Source of the DNA: Agathobacter sp.
Lineage (GTDB): Bacteria > Bacillota > Clostridia > Lachnospirales > Lachnospiraceae
Assembly (NCBI GenBank): GCA_017409825.1
Contig: JAFQRZ010000003.1
Location: forward strand, 1 to 64,000
Length of the DNA: 64,000 nucleotides
Direction: 5' to 3'
A model generated the notes under the pieces. That model saw only the letters and a list, made by a program, of their open reading frames with translations, was not told where the DNA came from and ran no database searches. Both the position numbers and the translations under genes were made by a program. Of this stretch, positions 37,991 to 51,091 are shown one piece after another. Within the stretch, counting starts at the first letter, position 1, and every line of letters begins with the position of its first letter.

Positions 37991-39604
37991 ATGGGCAATC
38001 AGGAAAATGCAAACAATGCACCACAGCAGGACTTAAACGAACTCCTTAGAATTCGTCGTGAAAAATTACAGACATTACAGGAAAACGGAAAAGATCCTTT
38101 TGTGATTACAAAATACAATCAGGAACATCATTCCGATGAAGTAAAATCTCTTTATGAAGCACATGAAGCAGAATTGCTTGCAGGAAGAGAGGCAGTAAAT
38201 ACAGATGGAATGGATGAAGCTGAAGCAAGACAGGCAATCAACGATGATTATAACGAGAGAAGAGCAATCATGGATGCAAGCCCAATTCAGGTAAGCATCG
38301 CTGGTCGTATGCTTTTCAAACGTGTTATGGGAAAAGCATCTTTCTGCAATATCCAGGATTTAAAGGGAAAAATTCAGGTATATGTGGCACGTGATGCCAT
38401 CGGAGAAGAATCTTATGCCGAATTCAAGAAATCAGATATCGGTGATATTTTTGGTGTGAAAGGATATGCATTCCGTACCAAAACTGGTGAAATCTCTATC
38501 CATGCGGAAGAATTAACAATGCTCTCAAAGAGCTTACAGATTCTTCCAGAAAAATTCCATGGCCTTACAGATACAGATACAAGATATCGTCAGCGTTATG
38601 TTGACCTTATCATGAACGAAGATTCAAGAGACACATTTATCAAACGTTCCAAAGTATTAAAGAGCATCCGTAACTACTTAGACGGACAGGGCTTCATGGA
38701 AGTAGAAACCCCTATGCTTGTTTCTAATGCAGGTGGAGCTGCGGCGAGACCATTCGAAACACACTTCAATGCATTAAACGAAGACTTCAAGCTTCGTATC
38801 TCGCTTGAACTTCCACTTAAGAGACTTATCGTTGGTGGTTTGGAAAGAGTATACGAAATCGGTCGAGTATTCCGTAACGAAGGTCTTGATACAAGACACA
38901 ATCCAGAGTTCACACTTATGGAACTTTACCAGGCTTACACAGACTACCACGGCATGATGGATTTAACAGAAAATCTTTATCGTTACGTAGCACAGGAAGT
39001 AACCGGTGGTTTGGAACTTACCTACGGTGAAAACGTAATGGATCTTTCAAAACCATTTGAAAGAATCACTATGGTAGATGCGGTTAAGAAATATGCAAAC
39101 GTAGACTGGAATGAAGTAGCTGACCTCGAAGCAGCTCGTGCTCTTGCAAAAGAACACCATATTGAATTCGAAGAACACCACAAGAAAGGTGATATTTTAA
39201 ACCTCTTCTTCGAAGAATATGTAGAACATCACTTAATTCAGCCAACCTTTGTAATGGATCATCCAATTGAGATTTCTCCACTTACAAAGAAAAAACCAGA
39301 AAATCCAGAATATGTAGAACGTTTCGAGTTCTTCATGAATGGATGGGAAATGGCAAATGCTTACTCAGAGCTTAATGACCCAATCGACCAGAGAGCTCGT
39401 TTCGAAGCACAGGAAGAACTTTTCGCAAACGGTGACGAAGAAGCAAATCACACCGACGAAGACTTCCTCAACGCACTTAGCATCGGTATGCCACCTACAG
39501 GCGGTATCGGTTTCGGTATTGATCGTATGGTAATGATGATGACAAACAGCCCTGCGATTCGAGATGTATTGTTGTTCCCGACAATGAAGAGTTTGGATAA
39601 ATAA
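37991..39604 (+). CDS. lysS: Lysyl-tRNA synthetase (class II)
   Basis: The 537-residue protein has an N-terminal OB-fold anticodon-binding domain (SIAGRMLFKRVMGKASF) and class II motifs: motif 2 YEIGRVFRNEG and motif 3 GGIGFGIDRMVMMM. ACGGAGGAAGAGC precedes ATG 37991. Its last 29 bases, including the stop codon, are the attachment site of the downstream island, so the integrated element leaves the protein unchanged but separates the gene from its original terminator. Confidence 0.96.
   Translation: MGNQENANNAPQQDLNELLRIRREKLQTLQENGKDPFVITKYNQEHHSDEVKSLYEAHEAELLAGREAVNTDGMDEAEARQAINDDYNERRAIMDASPIQVSIAGRMLFKRVMGKASFCNIQDLKGKIQVYVARDAIGEESYAEFKKSDIGDIFGVKGYAFRTKTGEISIHAEELTMLSKSLQILPEKFHGLTDTDTRYRQRYVDLIMNEDSRDTFIKRSKVLKSIRNYLDGQGFMEVETPMLVSNAGGAAARPFETHFNALNEDFKLRISLELPLKRLIVGGLERVYEIGRVFRNEGLDTRHNPEFTLMELYQAYTDYHGMMDLTENLYRYVAQEVTGGLELTYGENVMDLSKPFERITMVDAVKKYANVDWNEVADLEAARALAKEHHIEFEEHHKKGDILNLFFEEYVEHHLIQPTFVMDHPIEISPLTKKKPENPEYVERFEFFMNGWEMANAYSELNDPIDQRARFEAQEELFANGDEEANHTDEDFLNALSIGMPPTGGIGFGIDRMVMMMTNSPAIRDVLLFPTMKSLDK
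39576..39604 (+). repeat. attL of the lysS-integrated island (29-bp direct repeat)
   Basis: Bases 39576-39604 are identical to 50797-50825 over 29 positions. They begin TCCCGACAATGAAG and end GGATAAATAA with the lysS stop codon. The bases flanking both copies differ. Confidence 0.92.
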
Positions 39605-39645
39605 TCCCAGTCTTTATCGGCATTTGTAGACTTTTCGGGCTTTAG

Positions 39646-39664
39646 ATTATGCAAATATTATGCA
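39646..39664 (+). repeat. Putative integrase arm-type sites, left
   Basis: ATTATGCA occurs at 39646-39653 and 39657-39664, 11 bases apart, with a near-inverted copy (AGCATAAT) at 39684-39691. The same pair with the same 11-base phasing lies at 50670-50688 at the right end. Equal spacing near both att sites suggests recombinase arm binding. Confidence 0.55.
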
Positions 39665-39758
39665 AAGTTTGCAGAAAGTATGGAGCATAATGTAAGGATT
39701 TGTAAAAGGACACAATGCGGAATGATTGAAAATTAAAGAGTTTTAACCAGTGTGTACG

Positions 39759-39795
39759 GACCACTTTCAAGTGAATGCTTGGGAGTGGTCTTTTT
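39759..39795 (+). terminator. Element-borne copy of the lysS terminator
   Basis: GACCACTTTCAAG pairs with CTTGGGAGTGGTC (small mismatch) followed by TTTTT. The 50 bases from 39748 are nearly identical to 50829-50878 beyond attR, differing at about four positions. Confidence 0.85.
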
Positions 39796-40003
39796 GCGTT
39801 TTATAAAAGAAAATGCGTGAAATGAGAGTGGAGATTGATATCTTGACAGGAGGGGCATCTGTGCTAGGCTGGTTGGCTACAAGGCACACGAATTGATGGG
39901 ATAGATGGGAAGTGAGAGTGCTTTGTTTAATGCCTTGGAAGCACGGATGCGGGTACATGCTGTCAACATATTATATTTTATTAATGAAAAAATTGGTAAG
40001 AAG

Positions 40004-40012
40004 TGCTATACT
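40004..40012 (+). promoter_or_regulatory. Possible extended -10 promoter of the retron
   Basis: TGCTATACT is an extended -10 element 60 bases before the effector start. The -35 region is weak, so this is tentative. Confidence 0.4.
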
Positions 40013-40071
40013 AAATTATATGTAAGAATGAAATATATAAAACGCAATAAATTATTGCAGAGGACAAGTCA

Positions 40072-40956
40072 ATGGATATATTAAAGGTTAAACAGATATA
40101 CCAAGAAGTTTTTCTCTATATACAGCATAGTAATATTGATTTATTTTTGTGTGGAGGAGCAAGTAGTAAGACCAATGCTTCAAATAGAGATTTGCTACGT
40201 AAACGATTAGAAAAGAATGATAAATTATCTATTTTCTATCCGGAAGATATGTTTATGGAACTTCTAAGTAGAAAAAAATATGATTTATTTACTTTAGAAA
40301 ATTTCTTGGCGGAAAATAGTGATTTAATAATGATAGTGTGTGAAAGCCCAGGCTCATTTACGGAACTTGGAGCCTTTACTAGTAATGATAAAACATTGGA
40401 TAAATTAGTTGTTTTGATTCAAAAAAGATATAAAAACGACAAAAGTTTTATTATGCAAGGTCCTGTTAGATATATTGAATCTAAAAACAAGAATAATGTC
40501 ATTTATTTTAATAATGATATGGATGATATGGAAAAAGCTGTTGAATGTTATTTGAGTTCAAAGTATTGGTTTTATGGAAATAAAAAGTATGCAAGAAAAT
40601 ATGGAAGGTATACTAAAGAAATTGATTTGATATCGGGACAATTTTATTTTATAATGTTATTACTGTATTTTTACAATCGTGTTGAGATAAAGGATATGAA
40701 CGAAGCTATAAAAACGATATATCATGAAAGAAAGTTTGAACCAAGTCGTTTTGAAGTGATTTATACAGCTGCATTAAAACGATTGTATAAAGAGGGGATG
40801 CTTGTTAAGGAAGTAGAAGACGGTGCATATTTTTATAGGCTCACACAAAAGGGATATTATAATGTTAAAAAGTTGCTAAAAGATATAATGGTAGATGATA
40901 GAGATAAAGTTATAAATGGAATTAGGTTAAACATTATTACCGATCAATATTGTTAG
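40072..40956 (+). CDS. Retron effector, nucleoside deoxyribosyltransferase-like with wHTH
   Basis: The 294-residue protein shows the signature of the type II-A retron effector known from Ec86 (Eco1): LFLCGG (24-29), IFYPEDMF (54-61), LENFLAENSDLIMIV (75-89) and ESPGSFTELGAF (91-102, with the conserved Glu98). The C-terminal third (about 190-290) is helical with a winged-helix look (FEVIYTAALKRLYKEGMLVK .. YRLTQKGYYNVKK). In Ec86 this protein is held inactive in a filament with RT and msDNA and is released on phage attack. Here it precedes the ncRNA, and its stop codon overlaps the first bases of the a1 repeat. The AGGACAAGTCA region before ATG 40072 is a modest ribosome site. Confidence 0.9.
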   Translation: MDILKVKQIYQEVFLYIQHSNIDLFLCGGASSKTNASNRDLLRKRLEKNDKLSIFYPEDMFMELLSRKKYDLFTLENFLAENSDLIMIVCESPGSFTELGAFTSNDKTLDKLVVLIQKRYKNDKSFIMQGPVRYIESKNKNNVIYFNNDMDDMEKAVECYLSSKYWFYGNKKYARKYGRYTKEIDLISGQFYFIMLLLYFYNRVEIKDMNEAIKTIYHERKFEPSRFEVIYTAALKRLYKEGMLVKEVEDGAYFYRLTQKGYYNVKKLLKDIMVDDRDKVINGIRLNIITDQYC

Positions 40957-41135
40957 CACCACTATCTTAGAACGTTACAGATACATACTTATGTAGAAGT
41001 TTATGGGAGATGGTTCGTCTTCCGGAGCAAATTAACATGACCAGAGTTGGTCAAAACCATGGTGTCCTTCCACGACAGTGAAACCCCACCATGGTTTTGA
41101 CGCAAAAATATTTATGGTAAGAAAGTGGTGTTAAC
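40952..41135 (+). ncRNA. Retron msr-msd RNA
   Basis: The gap between effector and RT is bounded by complementary ends. a1 GTTAGCACCACTATCTTA (40952-40969) pairs with a2 TAAGAAAGTGGTGTTAAC (41118-41135) at 16 of 18 positions. G40970, right after a1, is the likely branching guanosine. The msr part has a TACAT/ATGTA hairpin (about 41001) and a GGGAGA/TCTTCC hairpin. The msd part has a perfect 15-bp stem (41050-41064 with 41087-41101) around a 22-base loop. The layout follows Ec86-type retrons; the exact msd ends are inferred. Confidence 0.88.
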
Positions 41136-41138
41136 AAT

Positions 41139-42251
41139 TTGAAAACATATAATAACAAAATGGTATTAGAGTCATTAAGGTTGCCAATGTTTGAAGATAT
41201 TGAGACATTGGCTGAAGAAACTAGATTAACTGAGAAACTGATTTATTTTTTGTGTAAAGAAGATGCAGAGGGTAGATATGTTTCATTTAAAATCCCGAAA
41301 AAGGATGGGCGTTATAGAGATATAAATGCACCTTGCATGGCTTTGAAAACATTACAAAAATGGGTGTTGCAGAATATTTTATATAAGGTTAGAGTTTCTC
41401 CGTATAGTATAGGGTTTAAAAAAGATGGAAAAGGTTCGCCTTTGCTTCAGAGTGCTGAACGTCATAAGAATAATTTATATATTCTTAAAATGGATTTAAA
41501 GGACTTTTTTCCATCGGTTAAACGTGAACAAGTATTTAATCAGTTTTTACAATTAGGATATAATACATATGCATCTAATATGCTGACTAATATATGCACA
41601 CTAAATGGTTGCTTGCCACAGGGAGCAGTGACATCGCCATATTTGGCCAATTTAGTGTGTTATAAAATGGATGTTAGAATTGCAGGTTACTGTAATAAAA
41701 GAGATATTATTTACACTAGATACGCGGATGATTTAATCTTTTCGTGTGACAATAGAGATGGTTTACGCAATATTTATGGCATGATTAAAAAGATTGTGGA
41801 GAACGAAGGCTTTTGTCTCAACGAAAAGAAAACGAGATTTTTAACACCTAAGTCTCATAAAAAAATTGTAGGTGTAACAGTGAATGACGGGCTAGTTAAG
41901 GCACCGAAGGAAATGAAGAAAATGGTTAGAGCAATGCTTCATTATTCGATAGTTAGTGGAGATTATTCTAATAATGATAGAATTAGGGGATATGTTTCAT
42001 ATATAGATTCTATTGAGAAAAACTACAGAAAAAAGATAGTTAAGTATATCACAAATTACATAAATGACTCTATTACTTTATTTCCAGACGCGGTAAAAAA
42101 ATTTAATGATAATAAATTGTTTAACGAAATACCGGATATGGTGCCAAAGAAAATTTCGGATTTTGTTGATTACGAGGAAGAAGATGATTATTTTCAAATG
42201 ATAACATATGAAAGAGAAGAATTTTTGACGAAACATGGTATAGAGGTATAA
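41139..42251 (+). CDS. Retron reverse transcriptase
   Basis: The 370-residue protein has the reverse transcriptase motifs in order: the basic finger KIPKKDGRYRDINAP, the catalytic Asp in ILKMDLKDFFPSV (113-126), LPQGAVTSPYLAN (159-171) and YTRYADDLIFS with YADD at 195-198. It also has the thumb-side GFCLNEKKTRFL and KKIVGVTVN. Group II intron maturase or endonuclease domains are absent and the length fits retron RTs. It would make msDNA from the adjacent RNA. The start is TTG 41139, next to a2; ATG 41160 is an alternative. Confidence 0.93.
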   Translation: MKTYNNKMVLESLRLPMFEDIETLAEETRLTEKLIYFLCKEDAEGRYVSFKIPKKDGRYRDINAPCMALKTLQKWVLQNILYKVRVSPYSIGFKKDGKGSPLLQSAERHKNNLYILKMDLKDFFPSVKREQVFNQFLQLGYNTYASNMLTNICTLNGCLPQGAVTSPYLANLVCYKMDVRIAGYCNKRDIIYTRYADDLIFSCDNRDGLRNIYGMIKKIVENEGFCLNEKKTRFLTPKSHKKIVGVTVNDGLVKAPKEMKKMVRAMLHYSIVSGDYSNNDRIRGYVSYIDSIEKNYRKKIVKYITNYINDSITLFPDAVKKFNDNKLFNEIPDMVPKKISDFVDYEEEDDYFQMITYEREEFLTKHGIEV

Positions 42252-42290
42252 AGATTGCCGAAGTTAAAAGTGTAACTTGGGCAGTCTTTA
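42251..42290 (+). terminator. Hairpin after the retron RT
   Basis: AAGATTGCC..AAGTTA pairs with TAACTT..GGCAGTCTT (16 bp with one mismatch, 6-base loop), starting in the RT stop codon. The T tract after it is poor (TATAAAAA), so it may be an mRNA-end hairpin rather than a strong terminator. Confidence 0.5.
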
Positions 42291-42333
42291 TAAAAATAGT
42301 TTGAGGCATTAAAAATTAAAAGGAGGGATTTTT

Positions 42334-43059
42334 ATAAGATTACAACCAAATAATTTTGAGTTGGAGCCAACTACAGTCTGGTCGTTTCCGGACAGAGGCA
42401 GTTGGGCAACTCACTCAGGGAAGTATAGGGGCAATTGGTCACCGTATGTACCAAGGAATCTGATACTTCGTTATTCAAAACCAGGAGACTGGATCCTAGA
42501 TCAATTCATGGGTAGCGGAACAACATTAGTTGAAGCAAAACTACTAAATCGAAATGCGATTGGTGTAGACATCAATCCGCAGTCAGTTTCAATATCTGAA
42601 ACAAATTTACAATTCCAATGTGATACAACTTCAAAGGTGCATATTAGAAAAGGAAGTGCGACGGATATGTCTTATATTAAAGATGGACGTATTGACTTTA
42701 TCTGTACGCACCCACCATATGCAAATATTATTAGATACAGCAAAGAGATAGAAAATGATCTCTCGCTATTATCTGTAGATGACTTCTTGACAGAAATGGA
42801 AAAAGTTGCATCAGAGGCATATCGAGTTCTTAAAAAGGGGAAAATGTGTGCAATTATGATGGGAGACATGCGTAAGCAGGGCAAGGTTATTCCGTTAGGA
42901 TTTAAAGTGATGGAATGCTTTCTAAAGGCAGGTTTTGTATCAAAAGAAATCATCATTAAGAAGCAACACAATTGCAAGTCAACTGAATATTGGAAAAATC
43001 GAAATAATAATTTCTTACTTCTTGCACATGAATACATATTTGTATTTCAAAAAGGGTAA
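42334..43059 (+). CDS. Solitary DNA methyltransferase, probable AUA start
   Basis: A compact methyltransferase of about 240 residues: AdoMet motif I ILDQFMGSGTTLVEA lies before the catalytic motif IV THPPYANIIRYS, and there is no evident target-recognition domain. The reading frame before TTG 42361 stays open and gives RLQPNNFELEPTTVWSFPDRG, a start I associate with this family. AGGAGG at 42321-42326 sits 7 bases before ATA 42334, so I infer an AUA start; TTG 42361 is the fallback and has no such site. It has no paired nuclease of its own. Confidence 0.7.
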   Translation: MRLQPNNFELEPTTVWSFPDRGSWATHSGKYRGNWSPYVPRNLILRYSKPGDWILDQFMGSGTTLVEAKLLNRNAIGVDINPQSVSISETNLQFQCDTTSKVHIRKGSATDMSYIKDGRIDFICTHPPYANIIRYSKEIENDLSLLSVDDFLTEMEKVASEAYRVLKKGKMCAIMMGDMRKQGKVIPLGFKVMECFLKAGFVSKEIIIKKQHNCKSTEYWKNRNNNFLLLAHEYIFVFQKG

Positions 43060-43158
43060 ATGGCAGAGGACGAAAATACCGGTTGTTATTTTGGCGTTTT
43101 CCACTTATAATATATTTGTGATTTTCTGTTCAATTTGAAGAGAGAAAAGAGGTCAAAA

Positions 43159-43992
43159 ATGAGTAACTCAAGTATTGCACCATTTGTAAAATGGGCAGGT
43201 GGAAAACGTCAGTTGATTCCACAAATCAGAGAGCGCATGCCAGAACAATTTAATAATTATTACGAACCATTTGTTGGCGGTGGCGCAGTGATTTTCGAGT
43301 TGCTACCGGAGAATGCAGTAATCAATGATATTAACAGAGCATTGATTAACACATACCAAATGATTTGTGACCATCCACAGGAGTTTTTGCAAGAAATCAA
43401 TAGATTGGATGCAGAGATGTGGGAAGATGGCAAGGAATATTATTATTCATTGCGTGAGCATTACAATGATAAATTAATGAGAGACGAGTTTGATGTGGAG
43501 CTAGCTGCATTGTTTGTTTTCATCAATAAGCATTGTTTTAATGGCTTATATAGAGTAAATGGTAAGGGACTTTTTAACGTTCCATACAATAACAGCCGTA
43601 GAAGTTCAGTTGACGAGCAATCGATTATGGAAATATCAGAGTATTTAAGAAATGTTACGATTATTTCCGGAGATTTCGAGGCAGCGTGTGAGGGTGCTAG
43701 CGCAGGCGATTTTGTATTTATAGATAGTCCGTATGCACCGTTAAATCCAACATCTTTTGAGTCGTATACTAAAGAAGGATTTGACATTGAAAGTCATAGA
43801 CGATTGGCAATTCTTTTTGATGAGTTGACAGCAAGAGGTTGCTATTGTATGCTGACAAATCATAATACAGAATTGATTAACGAACTGTATGGAAACAAAG
43901 GCTATACAATTGATGTTGTAAGCGTAAAGAGAATGATTAACTCGGATGCGTCAAATCGTGTCGGAGAAGAAGTTATTATATGTAACTATTAA
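43159..43992 (+). CDS. DNA adenine methyltransferase, DpnM/Dam type
   Basis: The 277-residue D12-class N6-adenine methyltransferase has FVKWAGGKRQLIPQI, the motif I region YYEPFVGGGAV and HCFNGLYRVNGKGLFNVPY. By the neighbouring DpnII nuclease gene, the site is GATC. The catalytic motif IV reads DSPYAPL in place of the usual DPPY. ATG 43159 follows AGAGGTC; the TTG at 43135 is less likely. First gene of the DpnII-like operon. Confidence 0.9.
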   Translation: MSNSSIAPFVKWAGGKRQLIPQIRERMPEQFNNYYEPFVGGGAVIFELLPENAVINDINRALINTYQMICDHPQEFLQEINRLDAEMWEDGKEYYYSLREHYNDKLMRDEFDVELAALFVFINKHCFNGLYRVNGKGLFNVPYNNSRRSSVDEQSIMEISEYLRNVTIISGDFEAACEGASAGDFVFIDSPYAPLNPTSFESYTKEGFDIESHRRLAILFDELTARGCYCMLTNHNTELINELYGNKGYTIDVVSVKRMINSDASNRVGEEVIICNY

Positions 43993-44004
43993 GGAGTCGA
44001 GATA

Positions 44005-44811
44005 ATGGAGAACTTATTTGAAAAGAAAGTGCCATTATATTTCGAGACAGAAGAATCACAACTTGTTTTGGGTGATTCATTTAAGATTCTTACAAAGATG
44101 AAACCTGAATCTGTGGATATGATATTTGCAGATCCACCATACTTTTTGAGCAACGATGGTATCACTTGCCAAGGTGGAAAAATGGTTTCGGTAAATAAAG
44201 GCTCATGGGACAAACTTTCAGAGAGTGGAACCGGCGTCGAGGAGAAACATAGGTTTAATAGAAAGTGGATTAGGTTATGTAAAAAAGTATTAAAACCAAA
44301 TGGTACAATTTGGATATCGGGGACATTACACAATATATATTCGATTGGTATGGCTTTGGAGCAGGAAGGCTTCAAAATAATTAATAACATAACTTGGCAG
44401 AAAACAAATCCACCACCAAACTTAGCATGTCGATGCTTCACGCATTCTACAGAAACCATCTTATGGGCGAAGAAGAATGATAAGAAGTCTCGGCATTTTT
44501 TTAATTATGAAAAAATGAAAGAAGATAACGGTGGCAAGCAAATGAAGGATGTATGGGTAGGTGCATTAACAAAGCCTTCTGAAAAGAAGGAAGGTAAGCA
44601 TCCAACACAGAAACCGGAATATTTGCTTGAGAGAATTGTGCTTGCATCTACGGAAGAAGGACAGGTGGTATTGGATCCATTTTGTGGTTCCGGTACAACG
44701 GGTGTGGAAGCTATTAGGTGTAGCAGAAAGTTCATTGGAATTGAAGTGAACGAGGAATATTTAGAAATTAGCAAAAGAAGATTGGAGAAGGAGTATGAAC
44801 AGAGGAAATGA
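44005..44811 (+). CDS. DpnA-type second adenine methyltransferase
   Basis: The 268-residue beta-class methyltransferase has motif IV ADPPYFLSNDG near residue 40 and motif I LDPFCGSGTTGVEA near residue 225. This order, together with KTNPPPNLACRCFTHSTETILWA, is that of M2.DpnII (DpnA). In the DpnII system DpnA also methylates single-stranded DNA and protects incoming DNA during transformation. AAGGAGTCGAGATA precedes the start. It overlaps the next gene by 17 bases. Confidence 0.92.
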   Translation: MENLFEKKVPLYFETEESQLVLGDSFKILTKMKPESVDMIFADPPYFLSNDGITCQGGKMVSVNKGSWDKLSESGTGVEEKHRFNRKWIRLCKKVLKPNGTIWISGTLHNIYSIGMALEQEGFKIINNITWQKTNPPPNLACRCFTHSTETILWAKKNDKKSRHFFNYEKMKEDNGGKQMKDVWVGALTKPSEKKEGKHPTQKPEYLLERIVLASTEEGQVVLDPFCGSGTTGVEAIRCSRKFIGIEVNEEYLEISKRRLEKEYEQRK

Positions 44812-46141
44812 TTTGCAAGCATTTGTAGAACGGATATCTTCAATTTATGATGCAGATCAAGATTTTTCAATTATAAGTGCAAGGAAGATTATTAAAGAGA
44901 TAAACGAGTTCCTTTATACAACATATGATGGAATCGGTATGGTAAAAGCGTTAGGAAACGAGTATCAATTTTTATCAGAATTTCACAGATATTGGAATGA
45001 TAATTATGCAGAGATATTGAATGCGAAAATATGCGATGAAAAGTGTGCTTTGGTAGCAGATGCACTATATGATATATACCGAAGAAGTGGTGGAGAGGCT
45101 TTTTCTGGTGTGTATGATACATATGGACTTTCGGATGAGGAAGTATGTAGAGTAAGAATGCTGACCGCAAATCAAGACTTTAGAGGATCAAGAGATTTTA
45201 AAGACTTAGTAGAGGTATTTAAAAGCGATAATAGTATTTTTGATCTGAAGTTTATTAATGAAGAGCCGGAGCTGTTTTTGAAAAGTATTGATGTGGGTTC
45301 TTTATCGCAGAATGATAAAAGAATTCCTTATGCAAAAGCGATTTCCAAGATGCTTATAGAATTAGGTGTTAGTCCGTATGAATTAATAGAATATTATGAC
45401 AGAGATATCTATGCGTTGCGAAATGCACTTATCGCATATAGTGGAGCCGGATATGGAAATAAGAAAGCAGATATGTTTGTGCGAGATATGGTGGTGCTTG
45501 GGGTGTGGGACAATGTACGCAATTTTGAAATGATAGACGTAGCATCAGATATTAATACTATCAAGGTGGCATTAAGAACGGGAATACTTTCAACGGAAAT
45601 TCCATTGGTATCAAGTTTCCTTGATATCTTTTGTAATCAGTATGCCCATATAGATGAAATGACTGCGAGAGCGTGGAGAAGAGTGTGGGAAATATTTGTT
45701 GATAAATATCCGGGAACCAATATAGTTAGTCCGTGTTTATTTGATTATTTTGTTTATAATGTTGTTGGACGTCAATTTTGCAAAGAGAATTTATTTATAT
45801 TTAGAGGAGAAGAATGTGGGCATACATTTTCGTGGCACTCTTCTCGAAATAAAGTATGTCAAGTTTGCTATAAACAACATGGAGTTAGGAAAGCCGCAAA
45901 TATTACGAAACGTTTATTTGCGTGCGAACATGCTGATGGGAAATTAGCTATGTGCAAGACAGATTTTTATGAAAGAGAGATGTGTTCTCCTAATGTTGAA
46001 GAATGTCCTTTTAAGAATATATGTAATAGCACCGGAAGTGTTAGATTGCAACCACCGAAATCAATCAGTATTCTAGGAAAAACAGGGTGGACAGATGCAT
46101 ACGCAAATAAAGGAGAAGGGGGAGGAGGATTAATGGCTTAA
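44795..46141 (+). CDS. Unrecognised Cys-rich protein in the DpnII operon
   Basis: The 448-residue protein overlaps dpnA by 17 bases and ends 14 bases before the nuclease gene, so it is made with the system. I do not recognise the family. Residues 214-232, AYSGAGYGNKKADMFVRDM, look like the helix-hairpin-helix of HhH-GPD DNA glycosylases, followed by DINTIKVALRTGI. The C-terminus has nine Cys between 329 and 410, including C387-x9-C397-x6-C404-x5-C410, which recalls the iron-sulfur loop of Nth/MutY with altered spacing. A zinc or [4Fe-4S] site and a base-repair role are inference only. Confidence 0.8.
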   Translation: MNRGNDLQAFVERISSIYDADQDFSIISARKIIKEINEFLYTTYDGIGMVKALGNEYQFLSEFHRYWNDNYAEILNAKICDEKCALVADALYDIYRRSGGEAFSGVYDTYGLSDEEVCRVRMLTANQDFRGSRDFKDLVEVFKSDNSIFDLKFINEEPELFLKSIDVGSLSQNDKRIPYAKAISKMLIELGVSPYELIEYYDRDIYALRNALIAYSGAGYGNKKADMFVRDMVVLGVWDNVRNFEMIDVASDINTIKVALRTGILSTEIPLVSSFLDIFCNQYAHIDEMTARAWRRVWEIFVDKYPGTNIVSPCLFDYFVYNVVGRQFCKENLFIFRGEECGHTFSWHSSRNKVCQVCYKQHGVRKAANITKRLFACEHADGKLAMCKTDFYEREMCSPNVEECPFKNICNSTGSVRLQPPKSISILGKTGWTDAYANKGEGGGGLMA

Positions 46142-46155
46142 TCCTTCATAGAAAA

Positions 46156-47028
46156 ATGACTAAAAGAAATTTTGATGAATGGTTAGGAACCTTTACAGAC
46201 AATATCAATTCATATACATATTATGTAGATTTTGAAGGTGTGTATGCGAATGCACAGTTGTTTAAGCGAGAACTGGCGTTAATGCAGACTTTGATTGGAA
46301 GTAAAAATATTCGTGAGGAATTTAAAGATTTAGTTACTGATTATCCAGAGGTTATAAAGTGTATTCCAATATTGTTGGCATTAAGGGACACTGTTGTTGC
46401 GGTAACGGATGAGGATGGAAGAAAAGACTACGATTTCAAGAAAATGAATTATAGTCTGGATGATTACTGTGATTTTATGGAAAAGACAGGTTTGTTTAAT
46501 TTATTAGCAAATCATGTTGTTTCAAACCTATATGACCTTGCTGGTTTGGGTATCAATATTGGATTATCTTCGAATGGACGTAAGAACAGAGGCGGACATC
46601 AGATGGAAGATTTGGTGGAAGGCTATATCGAAAAGGCGGGGTTCGTAAAGGGAGAAACATATTTTAAAGAAATGTATTTAACAGAGATAGAAGAAAAGTG
46701 GGGATACGATTTATCCAATATTTCTGCGGAGGGAACTAGTACAAAGCGATTTGATTTTGTAGTTAAACCGCAAGATTCTGATAATGTATATGTATGTGAG
46801 TGTAATTGCTACAGTTCTGGTGGTTCTAAACTAAATGAAACTGCAAGAAGTTTCAAAACAATTGCATTGGAAGCAGAGGAAATTCCGAATGTATACTTTG
46901 TTTGGTTTACTGACGGTGAGGGTTGGAAGTCTGCCAGACGTAATTTAAAAGAAACTTTTGATGTGTTAGAAACGATTTATAACATTGCGGATATGGAGAA
47001 TGGAATAATTAAAAAAATATTTCAATAA
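46156..47028 (+). CDS. Type II restriction endonuclease, DpnII family
   Basis: The 290-residue protein starts KRNFDEWLGTFTDNINSYTYYVDFEGVY, the N-terminus I associate with R.DpnII/MboI, and has the PD-(D/E)xK-like core around RFDFVVKPQDSDNVYVCECNCYSSGGSKLNETARSF. It would cut unmethylated GATC sites. Length matches R.DpnII (about 288). It is the last recognisable gene of the methylase-methylase-X-nuclease run. Confidence 0.92.
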   Translation: MTKRNFDEWLGTFTDNINSYTYYVDFEGVYANAQLFKRELALMQTLIGSKNIREEFKDLVTDYPEVIKCIPILLALRDTVVAVTDEDGRKDYDFKKMNYSLDDYCDFMEKTGLFNLLANHVVSNLYDLAGLGINIGLSSNGRKNRGGHQMEDLVEGYIEKAGFVKGETYFKEMYLTEIEEKWGYDLSNISAEGTSTKRFDFVVKPQDSDNVYVCECNCYSSGGSKLNETARSFKTIALEAEEIPNVYFVWFTDGEGWKSARRNLKETFDVLETIYNIADMENGIIKKIFQ

Positions 47029-47043
47029 GGTATAAGAGGGAAA

Positions 47044-47490
47044 ATGAAAAAGACACGTAGGAGAAAAAAGAAAAACAAGATTCAAGAAAATGGGCTTTGG
47101 AATGTTGTCCAAGAAGTATTAGTAAAACATTTTGGACTGACAGGATATGCTGTAGGTGGATTATTAAGTGGCCTAATACTGCATATAGCGTTTGCGTTAA
47201 TATACAGATTACAAAATTTGTTTCCTGTTAACGATGAAAATTTAGCAATCGTACCAATCATAATGAGTATTCTTGATATTGTATCAATTGTTTTGTGTTG
47301 TTTGGCAGGCTTGGCAGAGTTGATAGTGCATTTGATTCATAATTTCATAAGAATTTTTAAAGAGGAACAGATTAAGACAGAAAAAGAATTTCAAAAATAT
47401 GATTCTTTGCCAGGGAAAACAGCCGAAATTGCAAAAGAATTAGCAGAAGACATTGAAGCAATAGAAGTGGAGGATGATGATAATGCGTAA
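47044..47490 (+). CDS. Two-helix membrane protein of unknown function
   Basis: The 148-residue protein has a very basic N-terminus (KKTRRRKKKNK), two hydrophobic helices (about 35-58 and 68-100), and an acidic C-terminal tail ending EVEDDDNA. I recognise no family. It follows the nuclease gene by 15 bases and overlaps the DGQHR gene by 8 bases, so it may act with the DGQHR protein. Confidence 0.7.
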   Translation: MKKTRRRKKKNKIQENGLWNVVQEVLVKHFGLTGYAVGGLLSGLILHIAFALIYRLQNLFPVNDENLAIVPIIMSILDIVSIVLCCLAGLAELIVHLIHNFIRIFKEEQIKTEKEFQKYDSLPGKTAEIAKELAEDIEAIEVEDDDNA

Positions 47491-48700
47491 ATGCTTGAAA
47501 GTGATAGAAGTAAATCAAGATGGAAATATTTTTTATATTGGTAAAATGAAAGCACGGGAGTTAGCTGAACTCTCTACAACAAAAGTTCGATATGGTAAAA
47601 GTGAAAATGATTATATGAATTTTTTGCAAGAAGTAGGAGATATGGTTGAAAAACATATTAACGAAGGCGATGTATGGTATTTAAGAGAATTTGATGAAGA
47701 TCCAAATGTACAGAGACGGGAAAGTCTGGAACGTCTTAAGGAAATAGGGAAATATATAGAAAAAGCTAATTCGATTTTTCCGAATGCAATTATATGTAAT
47801 ATTTCACTAAAGAATGGGGAAATGGGTGAAGATATTTGGGATTATGTAAAAGTAACTGATGACAGTTTAAGTTTTGATTCAGATAAAATTGAAATATCTA
47901 TAATAGATGGACAGCATCGTTTGGGTGGTTTTAGATATGCAGAAGATAGTTACCTGGATAAATATGAATTAGTAGTAACGTATTTAGTAGGTTTATTGCC
48001 AGCACAGCAAGCGGAACTATTTGCGACAATAAATGGTAAACAGAAACCGGTAAACAAATCAGTATTGTATGATTTGTCAACAATGTCGGAAGATGAATAT
48101 TCACAACAAATGATGGCTCACCTTATTGTGACATGGTTTAATGTAAATGAGAAATCGCCGTTAAGGAACTATGTAAAAATGTTAGGAAGCGGAAGCGGAA
48201 CTATTTCTCAGGCTGCATTAATAGATGGATTGATGCCTATGATATCTCAGAAAAAAGGAATGTATAAAAAGTTAGATGACGTTAAAGCTAATTTAGAAAT
48301 GCCGATATTTTATGAGAATTATAGAAATAAAGATTCGAAGTATATTGTGCAAAATTTATATGACTATCTGAATGCGGTCAAGAAATGTTTTGAAGAGTAT
48401 TGGAATGCAAATAAGGGTTCTATATTGGTAAAAACAACAGGCATAATAGGATTGTTAATGGCGTATCCAACGATATATGCATATTTACGAATGGCATATG
48501 GAGATAATAGAGGTAGATATAGCAAAGAGATGCTGAAATTGTTGGAAGGAAGAAAGGGAAAGTTTATTCCAATAGCAGAACGTTATGAGGGAGGCGGAAA
48601 ACAGGTCCAAAAGAAGTTTGCTTGTGAATTTTTAGAAGATTTGTTTGATGAAAAAACGATATTAGAAACTAGAGTGGATTATATAGAAAACTTTATGTGA
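47483..48700 (+). CDS. DGQHR-domain (DndB-like) protein
   Basis: The 405-residue protein carries IIDGQHRLGGFRYAED near residue 150, the motif that names the DGQHR/DndB family, then FATINGKQKPVNKSVLYDL, typical of it. DndB acts with DNA phosphorothioation systems, but no dndACDE genes are in the window. Of three nearby ATG codons I prefer 47483, 9 bases after GGAGG; 47474 and 47477 are too close. Function in this island unknown. Confidence 0.85.
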   Translation: MRKCLKVIEVNQDGNIFYIGKMKARELAELSTTKVRYGKSENDYMNFLQEVGDMVEKHINEGDVWYLREFDEDPNVQRRESLERLKEIGKYIEKANSIFPNAIICNISLKNGEMGEDIWDYVKVTDDSLSFDSDKIEISIIDGQHRLGGFRYAEDSYLDKYELVVTYLVGLLPAQQAELFATINGKQKPVNKSVLYDLSTMSEDEYSQQMMAHLIVTWFNVNEKSPLRNYVKMLGSGSGTISQAALIDGLMPMISQKKGMYKKLDDVKANLEMPIFYENYRNKDSKYIVQNLYDYLNAVKKCFEEYWNANKGSILVKTTGIIGLLMAYPTIYAYLRMAYGDNRGRYSKEMLKLLEGRKGKFIPIAERYEGGGKQVQKKFACEFLEDLFDEKTILETRVDYIENFM

Positions 48701-49051
48701 TGGCATTATTCCGGGTCTTAGGGCTTGCCCTAATGTGAACGCTTTGGACGTGAAGTTTTGGCGCAAATTGCTAATGCAACTTTGTGCGTATCCTGTTAGA
48801 GTTTTTTTAGTAGTCAGGTCAGCTGTGATGTCTTTGGGGCAGTGCCGCTGACTTTGGCTTATTTACTGGGTTTGTGGGTGGTCAGCATCGCTGACCAGTA
48901 AATTTATAGAAATTGGTTGGTCAGTTGTACTGTCTGTATTTTGGTCAGTTCATCTGACCAATTTTTTTATGTATTTTTTGCAATCAGCTTTTTTTGACTC
49001 CAAGAAGATAGTAGAAGCCCAGAGAAGGGTGTCGGAAAGGAGGAAGTTGAT
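48701..49051 (+). other. Non-coding gap with GGTCAG repeats
   Basis: The 351-base gap holds four GGTCAG hexamers (48817, 48880, 48919, 48943). Two of them form dyads: TGGTCAGC-ATC-GCTGACCA (48879-48897) and the terminator at 48941-48968. A separate AGGGC/GCCCT hairpin lies near 48719-48731. No gene is seen. Confidence 0.65.
48941..48968 (+). terminator. Intrinsic terminator before the excisionase gene
   Basis: TTGGTCAG and CTGACCAA form an 8-bp stem with a 5-base loop and run into seven T. It would insulate xis/int from the defence genes. Confidence 0.85.
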
Positions 49052-49240
49052 ATGGCAGAAAAACAGACTAGAAAGAAATTCGTCCGCTACAAAGACGGTG
49101 CAGAATTGTATTCCCTAGGCATTCAGAACTTCATGAAGATTGCCAAGGAGGCAGGCGCGGTGCGTAAGATTCGCGGAACAGTTCTTGTGAATACTGAGAA
49201 GCTGGATGAATATATAGATTCTTTTGAAGTGAGAGAGTAA
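49052..49240 (+). CDS. Excisionase-like protein (DUF6462 style)
   Basis: The 62-residue basic protein (RKKFVRYKDGAELYSLGIQNFMKIAKEAGA) has the layout of the small winged-helix excisionases paired with Tn916-type integrases, including the VNTEKLDEYIDSF end. GGAAAGGAGGAAG precedes the start. The integrase gene lies 131 bases downstream. Confidence 0.82.
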   Translation: MAEKQTRKKFVRYKDGAELYSLGIQNFMKIAKEAGAVRKIRGTVLVNTEKLDEYIDSFEVRE

Positions 49241-49257
49241 AGATTAACAGGCGAGCC

Positions 49258-49309
49258 TTGACTGAGGAAGTGCATAAAAGATATAATGACAACACACAAG
49301 TCGTTGTCA
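49258..49309 (+). promoter_or_regulatory. Integrase promoter with overlapping operator dyad
   Basis: TTGACT (49258-49263), 18 bases, TATAAT (49282-49287). The dyad TGACAAC..GTTGTCA (49287-49293 and 49303-49309) begins at the last base of the -10 and covers the expected transcription start, a position suited to a repressor site. Confidence 0.6.
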
Positions 49310-49310
49310 A

Positions 49311-49366
49311 AGGAGGATATTTTATAGCACATTGGTTGAGGCTCGTTACTATTTAGAAACGAGGTG
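49311..49366 (+). promoter_or_regulatory. Integrase leader with alternative hairpins
   Basis: CTCGTT (49342-49347) can pair with AACGAG (49358-49363), covering part of the integrase ribosome site GAGGTG (49361-49366). The overlapping AGGCTCG (49339-49345) can instead pair with CGAGCCT (49252-49258), which lies upstream of the integrase promoter and so exists only in read-through RNA. An unused-looking AGGAGG lies at 49311-49316. Confidence 0.4.
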
Positions 49367-49371
49367 ATACT

Positions 49372-50631
49372 ATGGCAAGTGCCAGAAAAGACAAAAAAGG
49401 AAGAGCTCTTTACAAGGGCGAAAATGAACATGCAGCAGGCGGATATTATTATCAGTATATGCATCACGGGAAGAGACGGACGGTTTACGCACCATCGCTA
49501 CCGGAACTTCGGGAGAAAGAAGATCTGATTAAGAAAGCGATGATGGATGGATTGGATAGTCATCTCGCGAAAACCAAGACCTTGAATGATATGTTTGATG
49601 AGTATATGTGGCTTAAAACGGATATAAGGGAGACAACTCGTGCCAATTATACCTACATGTATAATCATTTCGTCCGGGATAGTTTTGGAAAACGAAAAGT
49701 AGGTTCTATCAAGTATACGGATGTAAAGGAATTCTATCTATCCATCTTACAAAACGATATGATGAAAGCGTCCACATTGGAAAGCATACATACAGTAGTC
49801 AGACCATCCATGCAGTTGGCAGTTCGTAATGATATCATTATGAAAAATCCATGCAATGATGTTATGGCGGAGATTAAGAGAAGTGCTTTCTGGGAAAAGG
49901 ATAAGAGACATGCTTTGACAGAGGAAGAACAGGATGCGTTTTTACAGTATCTTGCGGAGCATGAGGAAATGAGACGCTGGTATATTGTTTTTACAGTGCT
50001 GATAGGAACCGGAATGCGTCTGGGAGAGTTTAGTGGATTACGATGGGATGATGTGGATTTTGAAGAGAACCACATTGATGTAAACCATCAGGCTGTCTAT
50101 TACTCCCACGGAGACAGGAAATGTAGATGGGGAATCAGCGTTCCTAAGACAGAGAATGGAGTGCGTATTATACCGATGTTGGAACCTGTCAGAGAAGCAT
50201 TGCTGGAAGAATACGAGTGGCAGAAGGAACATGGTTTTAGCAAATATAAATTGGATGGGTATTCTAGGTTTGTGTTTACCAATCGATTTGACAAGCTCTA
50301 TAACCAAGGATGCCTGAACAAACAGATTGAACGAATCCGTCAGGCATACAACCGTGAGGAAGAGATAAAAGCCAAACAAGAGAAACGCCGTCCGTTATTG
50401 CTACCACACTTTACCAATCATCAGTTGCGCCATACCTTCTGTTCAAGGCTATGTGAGCAAGATGTAAATGTGAAACTGATTCAGGAAGTAATGGGACATG
50501 CAGACGTATCCACAACATTTGATATTTACGCAGAGTTTTCCGCAAAGAAGAAAAAGGAAGCATTTAAGCTTTTAGATAATGGTAGCATTATCAAGACGCA
50601 GAAGAAAGCGAAGCAAGATGATGACAATTAG
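49372..50631 (+). CDS. Tyrosine recombinase (Tn916-type integrase)
   Basis: The 419-residue protein has an N-terminal arm-binding domain (GGYYYQYMHHGKRRTVYAPSL), a core-binding domain (about 75-170) and a catalytic domain. The latter carries GTGMRLGEFSGLRW (Arg), HQLRHTFCSRL (His-x-x-Arg), MGHADVSTTFDIYAEF (His and the nucleophile Tyr). It would integrate and, with the excisionase, excise the island at the lysS 29-bp site. The gene lies about 165 bases from attR, the standard arrangement. GAGGTG precedes ATG 49372. Confidence 0.95.
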   Translation: MASARKDKKGRALYKGENEHAAGGYYYQYMHHGKRRTVYAPSLPELREKEDLIKKAMMDGLDSHLAKTKTLNDMFDEYMWLKTDIRETTRANYTYMYNHFVRDSFGKRKVGSIKYTDVKEFYLSILQNDMMKASTLESIHTVVRPSMQLAVRNDIIMKNPCNDVMAEIKRSAFWEKDKRHALTEEEQDAFLQYLAEHEEMRRWYIVFTVLIGTGMRLGEFSGLRWDDVDFEENHIDVNHQAVYYSHGDRKCRWGISVPKTENGVRIIPMLEPVREALLEEYEWQKEHGFSKYKLDGYSRFVFTNRFDKLYNQGCLNKQIERIRQAYNREEEIKAKQEKRRPLLLPHFTNHQLRHTFCSRLCEQDVNVKLIQEVMGHADVSTTFDIYAEFSAKKKKEAFKLLDNGSIIKTQKKAKQDDDN

Positions 50632-50669
50632 CATTGTGTCAGAGGCGACAGACTTGTGAATTTCATACT

Positions 50670-50688
50670 ATTATGCAGAAATTATGCA
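50670..50688 (+). repeat. Putative integrase arm-type sites, right
   Basis: ATTATGCA occurs at 50670-50677 and 50681-50688, with the same 11-base phasing as the left pair at 39646-39664. A further loosely shared stretch (AAGGACA) follows in both arms. Confidence 0.55.
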
Positions 50689-50796
50689 AAAGGCATATAC
50701 TATATGGAATCATGTGTAATCTTTATAGAAGGACAAAACGGCGGATTTAAAGCATTCATAGCGATTTGTAATCTTTTGTAAAGTGCCGGAAAGTCA

Positions 50797-50825
50797 TCCC
50801 GACAATGAAGAGTTTGGATAAATAA
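50797..50825 (+). repeat. attR of the lysS-integrated island (29-bp direct repeat)
   Basis: This is an exact copy of 39576-39604, the lysS 3' end with stop codon. Just beyond it lies the terminator that would have served lysS before integration. Confidence 0.92.
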
Positions 50826-50839
50826 GTGCAGTGTGTATG

Positions 50840-50876
50840 GACCACTTTCAAGCGAAGGCTTGGGAGTGGTCTTTTT
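50840..50876 (+). terminator. Original lysS terminator
   Basis: GACCACTTTCAAGC and GCTTGGGAGTGGTC form a long stem with a GAAG loop, followed by TTTTT. It lies 15 bases after attR. Confidence 0.88.
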
Positions 50877-51091
50877 GCATATGTGAAAAAAATGTATGGA
50901 TATAAAAAGAAGTAAAGGAAGTTTTCCGCAGAGATAAAGACCGTTTTATAGTACGACAAATGAGTATAATAGGAATTAGGAAGAGGAAAAGTATTCGCCT
51001 AGTTCTTATTTGATTGCAATTGTAGCACAACTACGATTTGATACACAGAAAGGCGGTATATTATGGAAAATTATAATTTACAATTACAGGA

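What the first reader, a model, noticed from the sequence alone, without database searches (positions are those of the whole stretch)
40072..42251. Complete type II-A (Ec86-like) retron with readable msr-msd
All three parts are present: an effector with the Ec86 signature (FYPED, ESPGSFTELGAF), an RNA with 16/18-complementary a1/a2 ends, a candidate branching G at 40970 and a perfect 15-bp msd stem, and a YADD reverse transcriptase. The order is effector-ncRNA-RT, and the effector stop codon lies inside a1, so RNA processing and effector translation ends are physically linked. Seen: motifs and repeats. Known: the family's anti-phage role. Inferred: activity.
Basis: partly seen in the sequence, partly recalled or inferred. 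Interest (0 to 1): 0.78.

Follow-up and report, generated by a model that had tools for sequence, protein, structure and literature searches.

The report
Ec86-type retron in a defence island
This is a complete-looking bacterial anti-phage system of the known Ec86 retron type (an effector, a folded RNA and a reverse transcriptase) carried on an inserted defence island; it is an ordinary member of its family, but the way its genes overlap the RNA suggests a testable way for the cell to make effector and reverse transcriptase together.

Summary
Window 40072-42251 carries an NDT-type effector, a retron RNA (40948-41138) and a retron reverse transcriptase (TTG start 41139). Both proteins score best against the same PADLOC II-A sub-models as Ec86. 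A covariance model built from five relatives, without the window, finds the RNA with the same ends. Relatives keep the layout, with compensatory pairs. It is a new member of a known kind: an Ec86-type II-A retron.

Ec86 has the same gene order, and its effector stop TAG supplies the G after a1 (that this G branches is recalled). In 17 of 17 analysed loci of the window and Ec86 clades the effector stop overlaps a1 and the RT Shine-Dalgarno lies in a2; three more distant II-A loci have only part of this, five other-type retrons lack the SD in a2. Folding predicts that a ribosome at the effector stop would open the RT start. That coupling is inferred.

The retron rides an 11.2-kb integrase island at lysS with a DpnII-type restriction system.

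The parts
40072..40956 (+). Effector gene, NDT-like retron St85/Ec86-family effector, 294 aa; Glu98 is at the position that is Ala in one of two Ec86 effector PDB sequences
40948..41138 (+). msr-msd retron RNA (ends from the covariance model)
40949..40969 (+). a1 arm; contains the effector stop codon
40954..40956 (+). Effector stop codon TAG inside a1
40970..40970 (+). Candidate branching (priming) G, directly 3' of a1, by analogy with Ec86 TTAG
   Evidence: not shown experimentally
41005..41023 (+). msr stem-loop predicted in the consensus of 6 sequences
   Evidence: alignment columns 71-90
41050..41101 (+). msd hairpin: perfect 15-bp outer stem 41050-41064/41087-41101
41118..41138 (+). a2 arm; contains the RT Shine-Dalgarno-like GAAAGTGGTGT (41121-41131), 7 nt before the TTG start
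41139..42251 (+). Retron reverse transcriptase, YADD; TTG start supported by the start position right after a2 in relatives
39576..39604 (+). Left 29-bp direct repeat = 3' end of lysS (probable attL of the island carrying the retron)
49372..50631 (+). Tn916-type tyrosine integrase of the island
50797..50825 (+). Right 29-bp direct repeat (probable attR)

Best explanation
An Ec86-type (type II-A) retron with all three parts. One polycistronic RNA probably runs from upstream of 40072 through the RT gene (inferred). The 191-nt msr-msd folds, a1 pairs with a2, and the RT starts cDNA synthesis from the 2'-OH of G40970 and copies the msd hairpin into msDNA (inferred from Ec86). RT, RNA and msDNA hold the NDT-like effector inactive; a phage trigger releases it and it hydrolyses NAD, ending the infection (inferred from Eco1, not shown here). 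Extra step, inferred: because the effector stop lies in a1 and the RT Shine-Dalgarno lies in a2, ribosomes finishing the effector open the a1:a2 stem and let the RT be translated, so effector and RT are made together; when the stem is closed the RNA serves as the msDNA template.
For: Protein families; PDB sequence matches; conserved Glu98 and YADD; RNA homology and covariation; same layout in L001, L002, L009, L010, L011, L012, L019 and L040 and in the Ec86 clade; effector stop overlapping a1 and SD in a2 in 17 of 17 analysed loci of these clades; median cost of opening the SD falls from 15.6 to about 4 kcal/mol when the stretch under a terminating ribosome is kept unpaired, against medians of 14.7-16.4 for three control stretches. 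PMC12405507 (passages only) states that Retron-Eco1 forms filaments and defends via NAD+ hydrolysis.
Against: No expression, msDNA or phage data. The 17 loci are three related lineages with several near-copies, so not independent. L004 (Acidobacteriota) has the stop at a1 but the SD outside a2; L058 and L059 (Alphaproteobacteria) have the RT start codon in a2 but the effector stop upstream of a1. Single loci also lose some opening cost with a control stretch blocked (L042 14.3 to 9.5 and L040 13.8 to 10.2 with the msr stretch). Eco1 RT with msr-msd is widely used without its effector (recalled; the passages of PMC8989520 mention ncRNA/RT constructs only as controls), so coupling cannot be absolute; those passages also report that the Eco1 effector alone was not toxic on overexpression, which weakens the need for dosage control. 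The SD of the window is moderate (-6.4 kcal/mol) and the start is TTG. A promoter-like site inside the effector (40627-40655, 11 of 12) could uncouple RT from effector, though promoter-like sites were not above chance (19 found, 15.7 sd 3.6 in shuffles).
Confidence: 0.85

Rival explanations
1. The overlap of effector stop, a1, a2 and RT Shine-Dalgarno is only compaction: the RT gene begins right after the RNA, and a2 happens to serve as ribosome-binding site without regulatory effect.
For: L004, L058 and L059 depart from the pattern; retron RNA and RT are used apart from the effector (recalled). The 17 loci are only three lineages.
Against: An SD inside a2 at 4-9 nt from the start is kept in 17 loci although the SD letters differ (AAAGTGGTG, GAGGTG, AAAGGAG, AAGGGTG) and a1 differs with them; in five retrons of other kinds the best SD match lies outside a2 (arms there are best-helix guesses).
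Confidence: 0.45
2. Autorepression: RT bound to the msr and a1:a2 stem on its own mRNA hides the RT Shine-Dalgarno, so finished RT-RNA complex shuts off further RT synthesis; effector translation is not needed.
For: Same geometry; RT-Ec86 binds its primer recognition RNA (title of a 2004 paper in a reference list).
Against: Does not explain why the effector stop overlaps a1 in both clades; no binding data here.
Confidence: 0.25
3. Decayed or inactive retron remnant.
For: TTG start; sporadic distribution (7 of 299 sampled genomes of the family had an effector match, two of them weak).
Against: Full-length frames without internal stops, invariant YADD and Glu98, compensatory base pairs, same start position in relatives.
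Confidence: 0.04
4. It belongs with another retron type (III-A, XIII or the St85-like branch of II-A).
For: III-A and XIII RT models also score highly (E 2.9e-78 and 6e-78); in the reduced tree two III-A RTs fall in an unresolved fork with the Ec86 and window clades.
Against: The II-A model is about 147 bits better; the effector is NDT-like; in St85-like L061, L065 and L067 the effector abuts or overlaps the RT, and L067 has other best models, PDLC02939 and PDLC02928.
Confidence: 0.05

Closest known systems
Retron-Eco1 (Ec86), type II-A (locus L045)
   Same: Same best PADLOC sub-models for RT and effector; same order effector-ncRNA-RT; effector stop at a1 and RT SD in a2; effector motif ESPGSFTELGAF
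   Different: Only 28% (effector) and 37% (RT) identical; effector stop 14 nt 5' of the candidate branch G instead of supplying it; arms 21 vs 12 nt; the Ec86-clade covariance model does not find the window RNA; RT has a C-terminal extension of about 60 aa that Ec86 and some close kin lack
Unnamed retrons in L001 (uncultured Clostridiales RUG441) and L002 (Lachnospiraceae bacterium B68)
   Same: Effector 69 and 66%, RT 74 and 71% identical; same layout and RNA
   Different: Neighbours differ: none of the window's other island genes was found in the DNA held (L001 9.5 kb, L002 with only about 0.6 kb beyond the RT); in L002 a guaA-like gene, named by eye, lies upstream
St85-like branch of II-A (L061, L065, L067)
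   Same: NDT-like effector annotated as retron St85 family effector, plus retron RT
   Different: Effector abuts or overlaps the RT, leaving no room for an ncRNA between them; other PADLOC sub-models, tested for L067

Membership tests
Type II-A retron, Ec86 subtype | Retron RT of the II-A group | tested here: met
   PADLOC PDLC02941 E 6.2e-123, first of 80 families; same first model for L045 (Ec86); NCBIfam NF038233 284.1 vs 235 bits
Type II-A retron, Ec86 subtype | NDT-like effector | tested here: met
   PADLOC PDLC02930 E 8.3e-86; NF038232 186.7 vs 100 bits; PDB Ec86 effector 1.2e-27. Pfam gave no family; in whole-genome searches PDLC02930 also gave weak hits and rang in 1 of 14 control genomes
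Type II-A retron, Ec86 subtype | C-terminal DNA-binding (winged-helix) part of the effector | tested here: inconclusive
Type II-A retron, Ec86 subtype | Structured msr-msd RNA with a1/a2 arms next to the RT | tested here: met
   but the Ec86-clade model does not match it
Type II-A retron, Ec86 subtype | RT and effector group with II-A in a phylogeny | tested here: inconclusive
   RT: nine-row window plus L012 group 97/98, 94/90 in a reduced tree; its union with the Ec86 clade and L004 neither supported nor rejected (AU p 0.269). Effector: 20 rows with window, L012, Ec86, alpha and L004 against six St85-like rows, 84/88
Type II-A retron, Ec86 subtype | msDNA with 2'-5' branch at a G after a1 | not testable with these tools
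   needs msDNA extraction
Type II-A retron, Ec86 subtype | NAD-hydrolysing filament and phage defence | not testable with these tools
   stated for Eco1 in a passage of PMC12405507
Rfam RNA family | Match at gathering score | tested here: not met
St85-like branch of II-A | Effector abutting or overlapping the RT | tested here: not met
   182-nt gap holding the RNA

The most novel reading that the evidence does not exclude
In Ec86-type II-A retrons the a1:a2 stem is a translational switch. a1 carries the effector stop codon (in Ec86 that stop supplies the branching G) and acts as a cis anti-Shine-Dalgarno; a2 carries the RT Shine-Dalgarno. Each mRNA is therefore either an RT message, when ribosomes finish the effector, or a closed template for msDNA. 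This would tie effector, RT and msDNA output to each other before any phage arrives: a built-in dosage control.
Probability: 0.35. Interest if true: 0.6.

Novelty: new member of a known kind. Interest (0 to 1): 0.33.

Why it matters
As a retron it adds an Ec86-type example from a gut- or rumen-type Bacillota lineage (host not named; nearest named relatives are Clostridiales and Lachnospiraceae), with an RNA that differs enough from Ec86 (21- vs 12-nt arms, no match to the Ec86-clade model) to be of use for tests of what the RT recognises. The shared overlap of effector stop, a1, a2 and RT start, found from Clostridia to Ec86, is a cheap handle on an open question: how a cell balances an effector against the RT-msDNA that restrains it. 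I saw no mention of it in the listings or in the passages opened; these cover only open-licence papers. Mestre 2020, the classification paper, was not held, and the Ec86 structure papers were seen only as titles in reference lists.

Tried and rejected
Rfam, strict and permissive: nothing useful. Plasmid and phage collections with the effector: 4 and 14 records, none with one place covering 80% of the query. The idea that the order or stop-in-a1 is peculiar to this window: rejected by Ec86 itself. Trigger by Dam methylation of GATC in the msDNA (recalled for retron-Sen2), prompted by the neighbouring Dam-type gene: the 191-nt RNA has no GATC, but so short a stretch says little. Internal promoter at 40627: similar hexamers in L001 and L002 at the same codons, not above chance in the window; left open. 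Ec86-based covariance model: misses the window and eight other window- or L012-clade loci; only L004 came near, E 0.059. The window-clade model matched one Ec86-clade locus, L057 (E 2.7e-9), but not L045 or L042.

Rows dropped before counts: repeats of one locus (L005, L008, L016 = window; L015, L038 = L002; L017 = L012; L018 = L011; L037 = L019); L003 (short contig, part of an effector); weak or partial hits L013, L014, L021-L025, L028-L032, L039; near-copies L046-L051 and L054-L056 not folded (L051 printed). RT-only L033-L036: L033 used in one tree, the rest unused. L060 and L069 fetched and not analysed. L004, L058 and L059 are told apart from the 17; L020, L026, L027 have the other layout. 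Corrections: the RT start of L057 was set wrongly, so its SD showed outside a2; reset to 3972, and inside a2. Searches trimmed the L057 a1 before TTA, so one search prints its stop as not in a1; with TTA restored to a1 as the pairs hold. In the five other-kind retrons the arms are best-helix guesses; for L064 I chose the second helix by hand, because the first looked like an msd stem; L068 has no real SD (+1.5 kcal/mol). One search ended in a traceback after the effector tree; the RT tree was redone.

Full report
What is there. Window 40072-40956 encodes a 294-aa protein, 41139-42251 a 370-aa reverse transcriptase, and the 182 nt between stop and start hold a stretch rich in inverted repeats. 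The effector is NDT_II-A in PADLOC (PDLC02930, E 8.3e-86) and the RT is RT_II-A (PDLC02941, E 6.2e-123). NCBIfam names both above its cut-offs as retron St85-family effector (186.7 vs 100 bits) and RT (284.1 vs 235). The nearest solved chains by sequence are Ec86 RT (4.8e-61) and the Ec86 effector (1.2e-27). In one of the two Ec86 effector sequences the Glu of FTELGAF is Ala; that Glu is invariant in the 15 effectors aligned here.

The RNA. a1 (40949-40969) and a2 (41118-41138) pair at 20 of 21 positions. A consensus fold of the window and five relatives gives the a1:a2 stem, an msr hairpin, a small stem and the msd hairpin: 58 pairs, 18 with at least one both-sides change that keeps the pair. 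A covariance model built without the window finds 40948-41138 at E 2.6e-44 and also L012, L019, L040 and one Ec86-clade locus, L057; the whole genome holds only this match. A weaker opposite-strand match at 41047-41120 (E 1.1e-4) I read as the msd stem seen backwards. A model of eight Ec86-clade RNAs finds neither the window nor its clade.

Relatives and placement. L001, L002, L009, L010, L011, L012, L019 and L040 have the same order, with 174-191 nt between effector stop and matched RT start (L040 is a viral-collection contig of unstated host). These and the window form one RT group (97/98; 94/90 in a reduced tree). The Ec86 clade is separate (100/100). Whether the two join to the exclusion of III-A is open: the constrained tree is not rejected (AU p 0.269). 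The sub-model test is clearer: RTs of L045 (whose sequence agrees with the Ec86 chain printed), L012, L002 and L004 take PDLC02941 first, while L067 and L020 take PDLC02939. Effector matches are sparse: 7 of 299 sampled genomes of the host's family, two weak; 11 of 392 of the order, five weak; 9 of 398 of the phylum, five weak; the samples overlap, and the family model also rang in 1 of 14 control genomes.

Order and overlap. In 11 of 18 viral-collection loci the Ec86 msr string occurs, and in those printed the effector stop TAG is the TAG of its CTTAG; that its G is the branching G is recalled. All 18 have effector before RT. PMC8989520 (passages) names the Eco1 operon parts as accessory, ncRNA, RT in a figure legend, and PMC12548924 (section 6 read) names the canonical operon as effector, ncRNA, RT. 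In the window and L012 clades the stop lies 13-15 nt 5' of the candidate branch G instead.

Possible switch. In nine loci of the window and L012 clades and eight of the Ec86 clade the best anti-SD match before the RT start lies in a2 (wholly in 16; 9 of 12 nt in L011), 4-9 nt before the start codon, and the effector stop overlaps a1 (in the Ec86 clade by its T and A, its G being the candidate branch G). SD letters differ between clades and a1 differs with them. Opening the SD in the folded transcript costs 10.8-18.7 kcal/mol; with the stretch under a ribosome at the effector stop kept unpaired it costs 1.8-7.7; with 28-nt control stretches upstream, in the msr or in the msd unpaired it costs 8.5-19.7. 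The unpaired probability of the SD goes from 0-0.19 to 0.14-0.71. Departures: L004 (stop at a1, SD outside a2); L058 and L059 (start codon in a2, stop outside a1). In five retrons of other kinds (L062, L063, L064, L066, L068) the best SD match lies outside a2, with arms guessed as the best helix; in L062 the upstream stop overlaps a1 by 2 nt. All this is prediction from geometry and energy, on three related lineages, without expression data. Eco1 RT and msr-msd are used without the effector (recalled), so strict dependence is unlikely.

Setting. The retron is the first unit of an 11,221-bp low-GC island (35.3% GC against 39.2% for the rest of the window; retron 30.5%) bounded by a perfect 29-bp repeat of the lysS 3' end (39576 and 50797) and carrying a Tn916-type integrase, a Dam-type and two N6/N4-type DNA methyltransferases, a DpnII endonuclease and a DndB-like protein. 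In both same-genus genomes searched (G624, G292) none of these island genes was found in the roughly 1.5 kb held after lysS.

Verdict. A real, complete-looking, ordinary Ec86-type II-A retron: new member of a known kind. The most interesting part is the overlap of coding ends with a1 and a2 in two of its clades, and the translational coupling it predicts.

Noticed in passing
window 39576-50825: 11.2-kb genomic island at the 3' end of lysS: 29-bp perfect direct repeats, Tn916-type integrase at 49372-50631, carrying retron, DpnII-type restriction-modification and a DndB-like gene.
   Followed up: partly
window 42361-47028: Three DNA methyltransferases (42361, Dam-type 43135, 44005) plus a DpnII endonuclease (46156-47028), right after the retron.
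   Followed up: partly
window 44795-46141 and 47044-47490: Two island proteins (448 and 148 aa) without a match in the libraries tried (44795: PADLOC, Pfam, NCBIfam, PHROGs; 47044: Pfam, NCBIfam, PHROGs); the first lies among the DpnII-system genes and has a Cys-rich C-terminal part.
   Followed up: no
window 39748-39811 and 50829-50892: A second pair of direct repeats, 64 nt at 86%, that includes a terminator-like hairpin at 39758; may record an earlier insertion.
   Followed up: no
L006 979-1866 (G000 contig C7): A second retron-like RT in the same genome, about 25% identical over 301 aligned positions; NCBIfam retron_St85_RT 135 bits, under the 235 cut-off.
   Followed up: partly
window 1-64000: GATC is rare: 51 found vs 179 expected from base composition outside the island and 11 vs 33 inside, in a genome that holds a DpnII-type system.
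   Followed up: no
window 42060-42250: The RTs of the window, L002, L009 and L010 have a C-terminal extension of about 60 aa, missing in L001, L011, L012 and the Ec86-clade rows aligned.
   Followed up: no
L058 3553-3565, L059 3505-3517: Alphaproteobacterial retrons with a St85-family effector whose RT start codon itself lies in the predicted a2.
   Followed up: partly
control genomes: The PADLOC NDT_II-A model PDLC02930 rings in Sulfolobus acidocaldarius, 1 of 14 control genomes; the protein behind it was not looked at.
   Followed up: no
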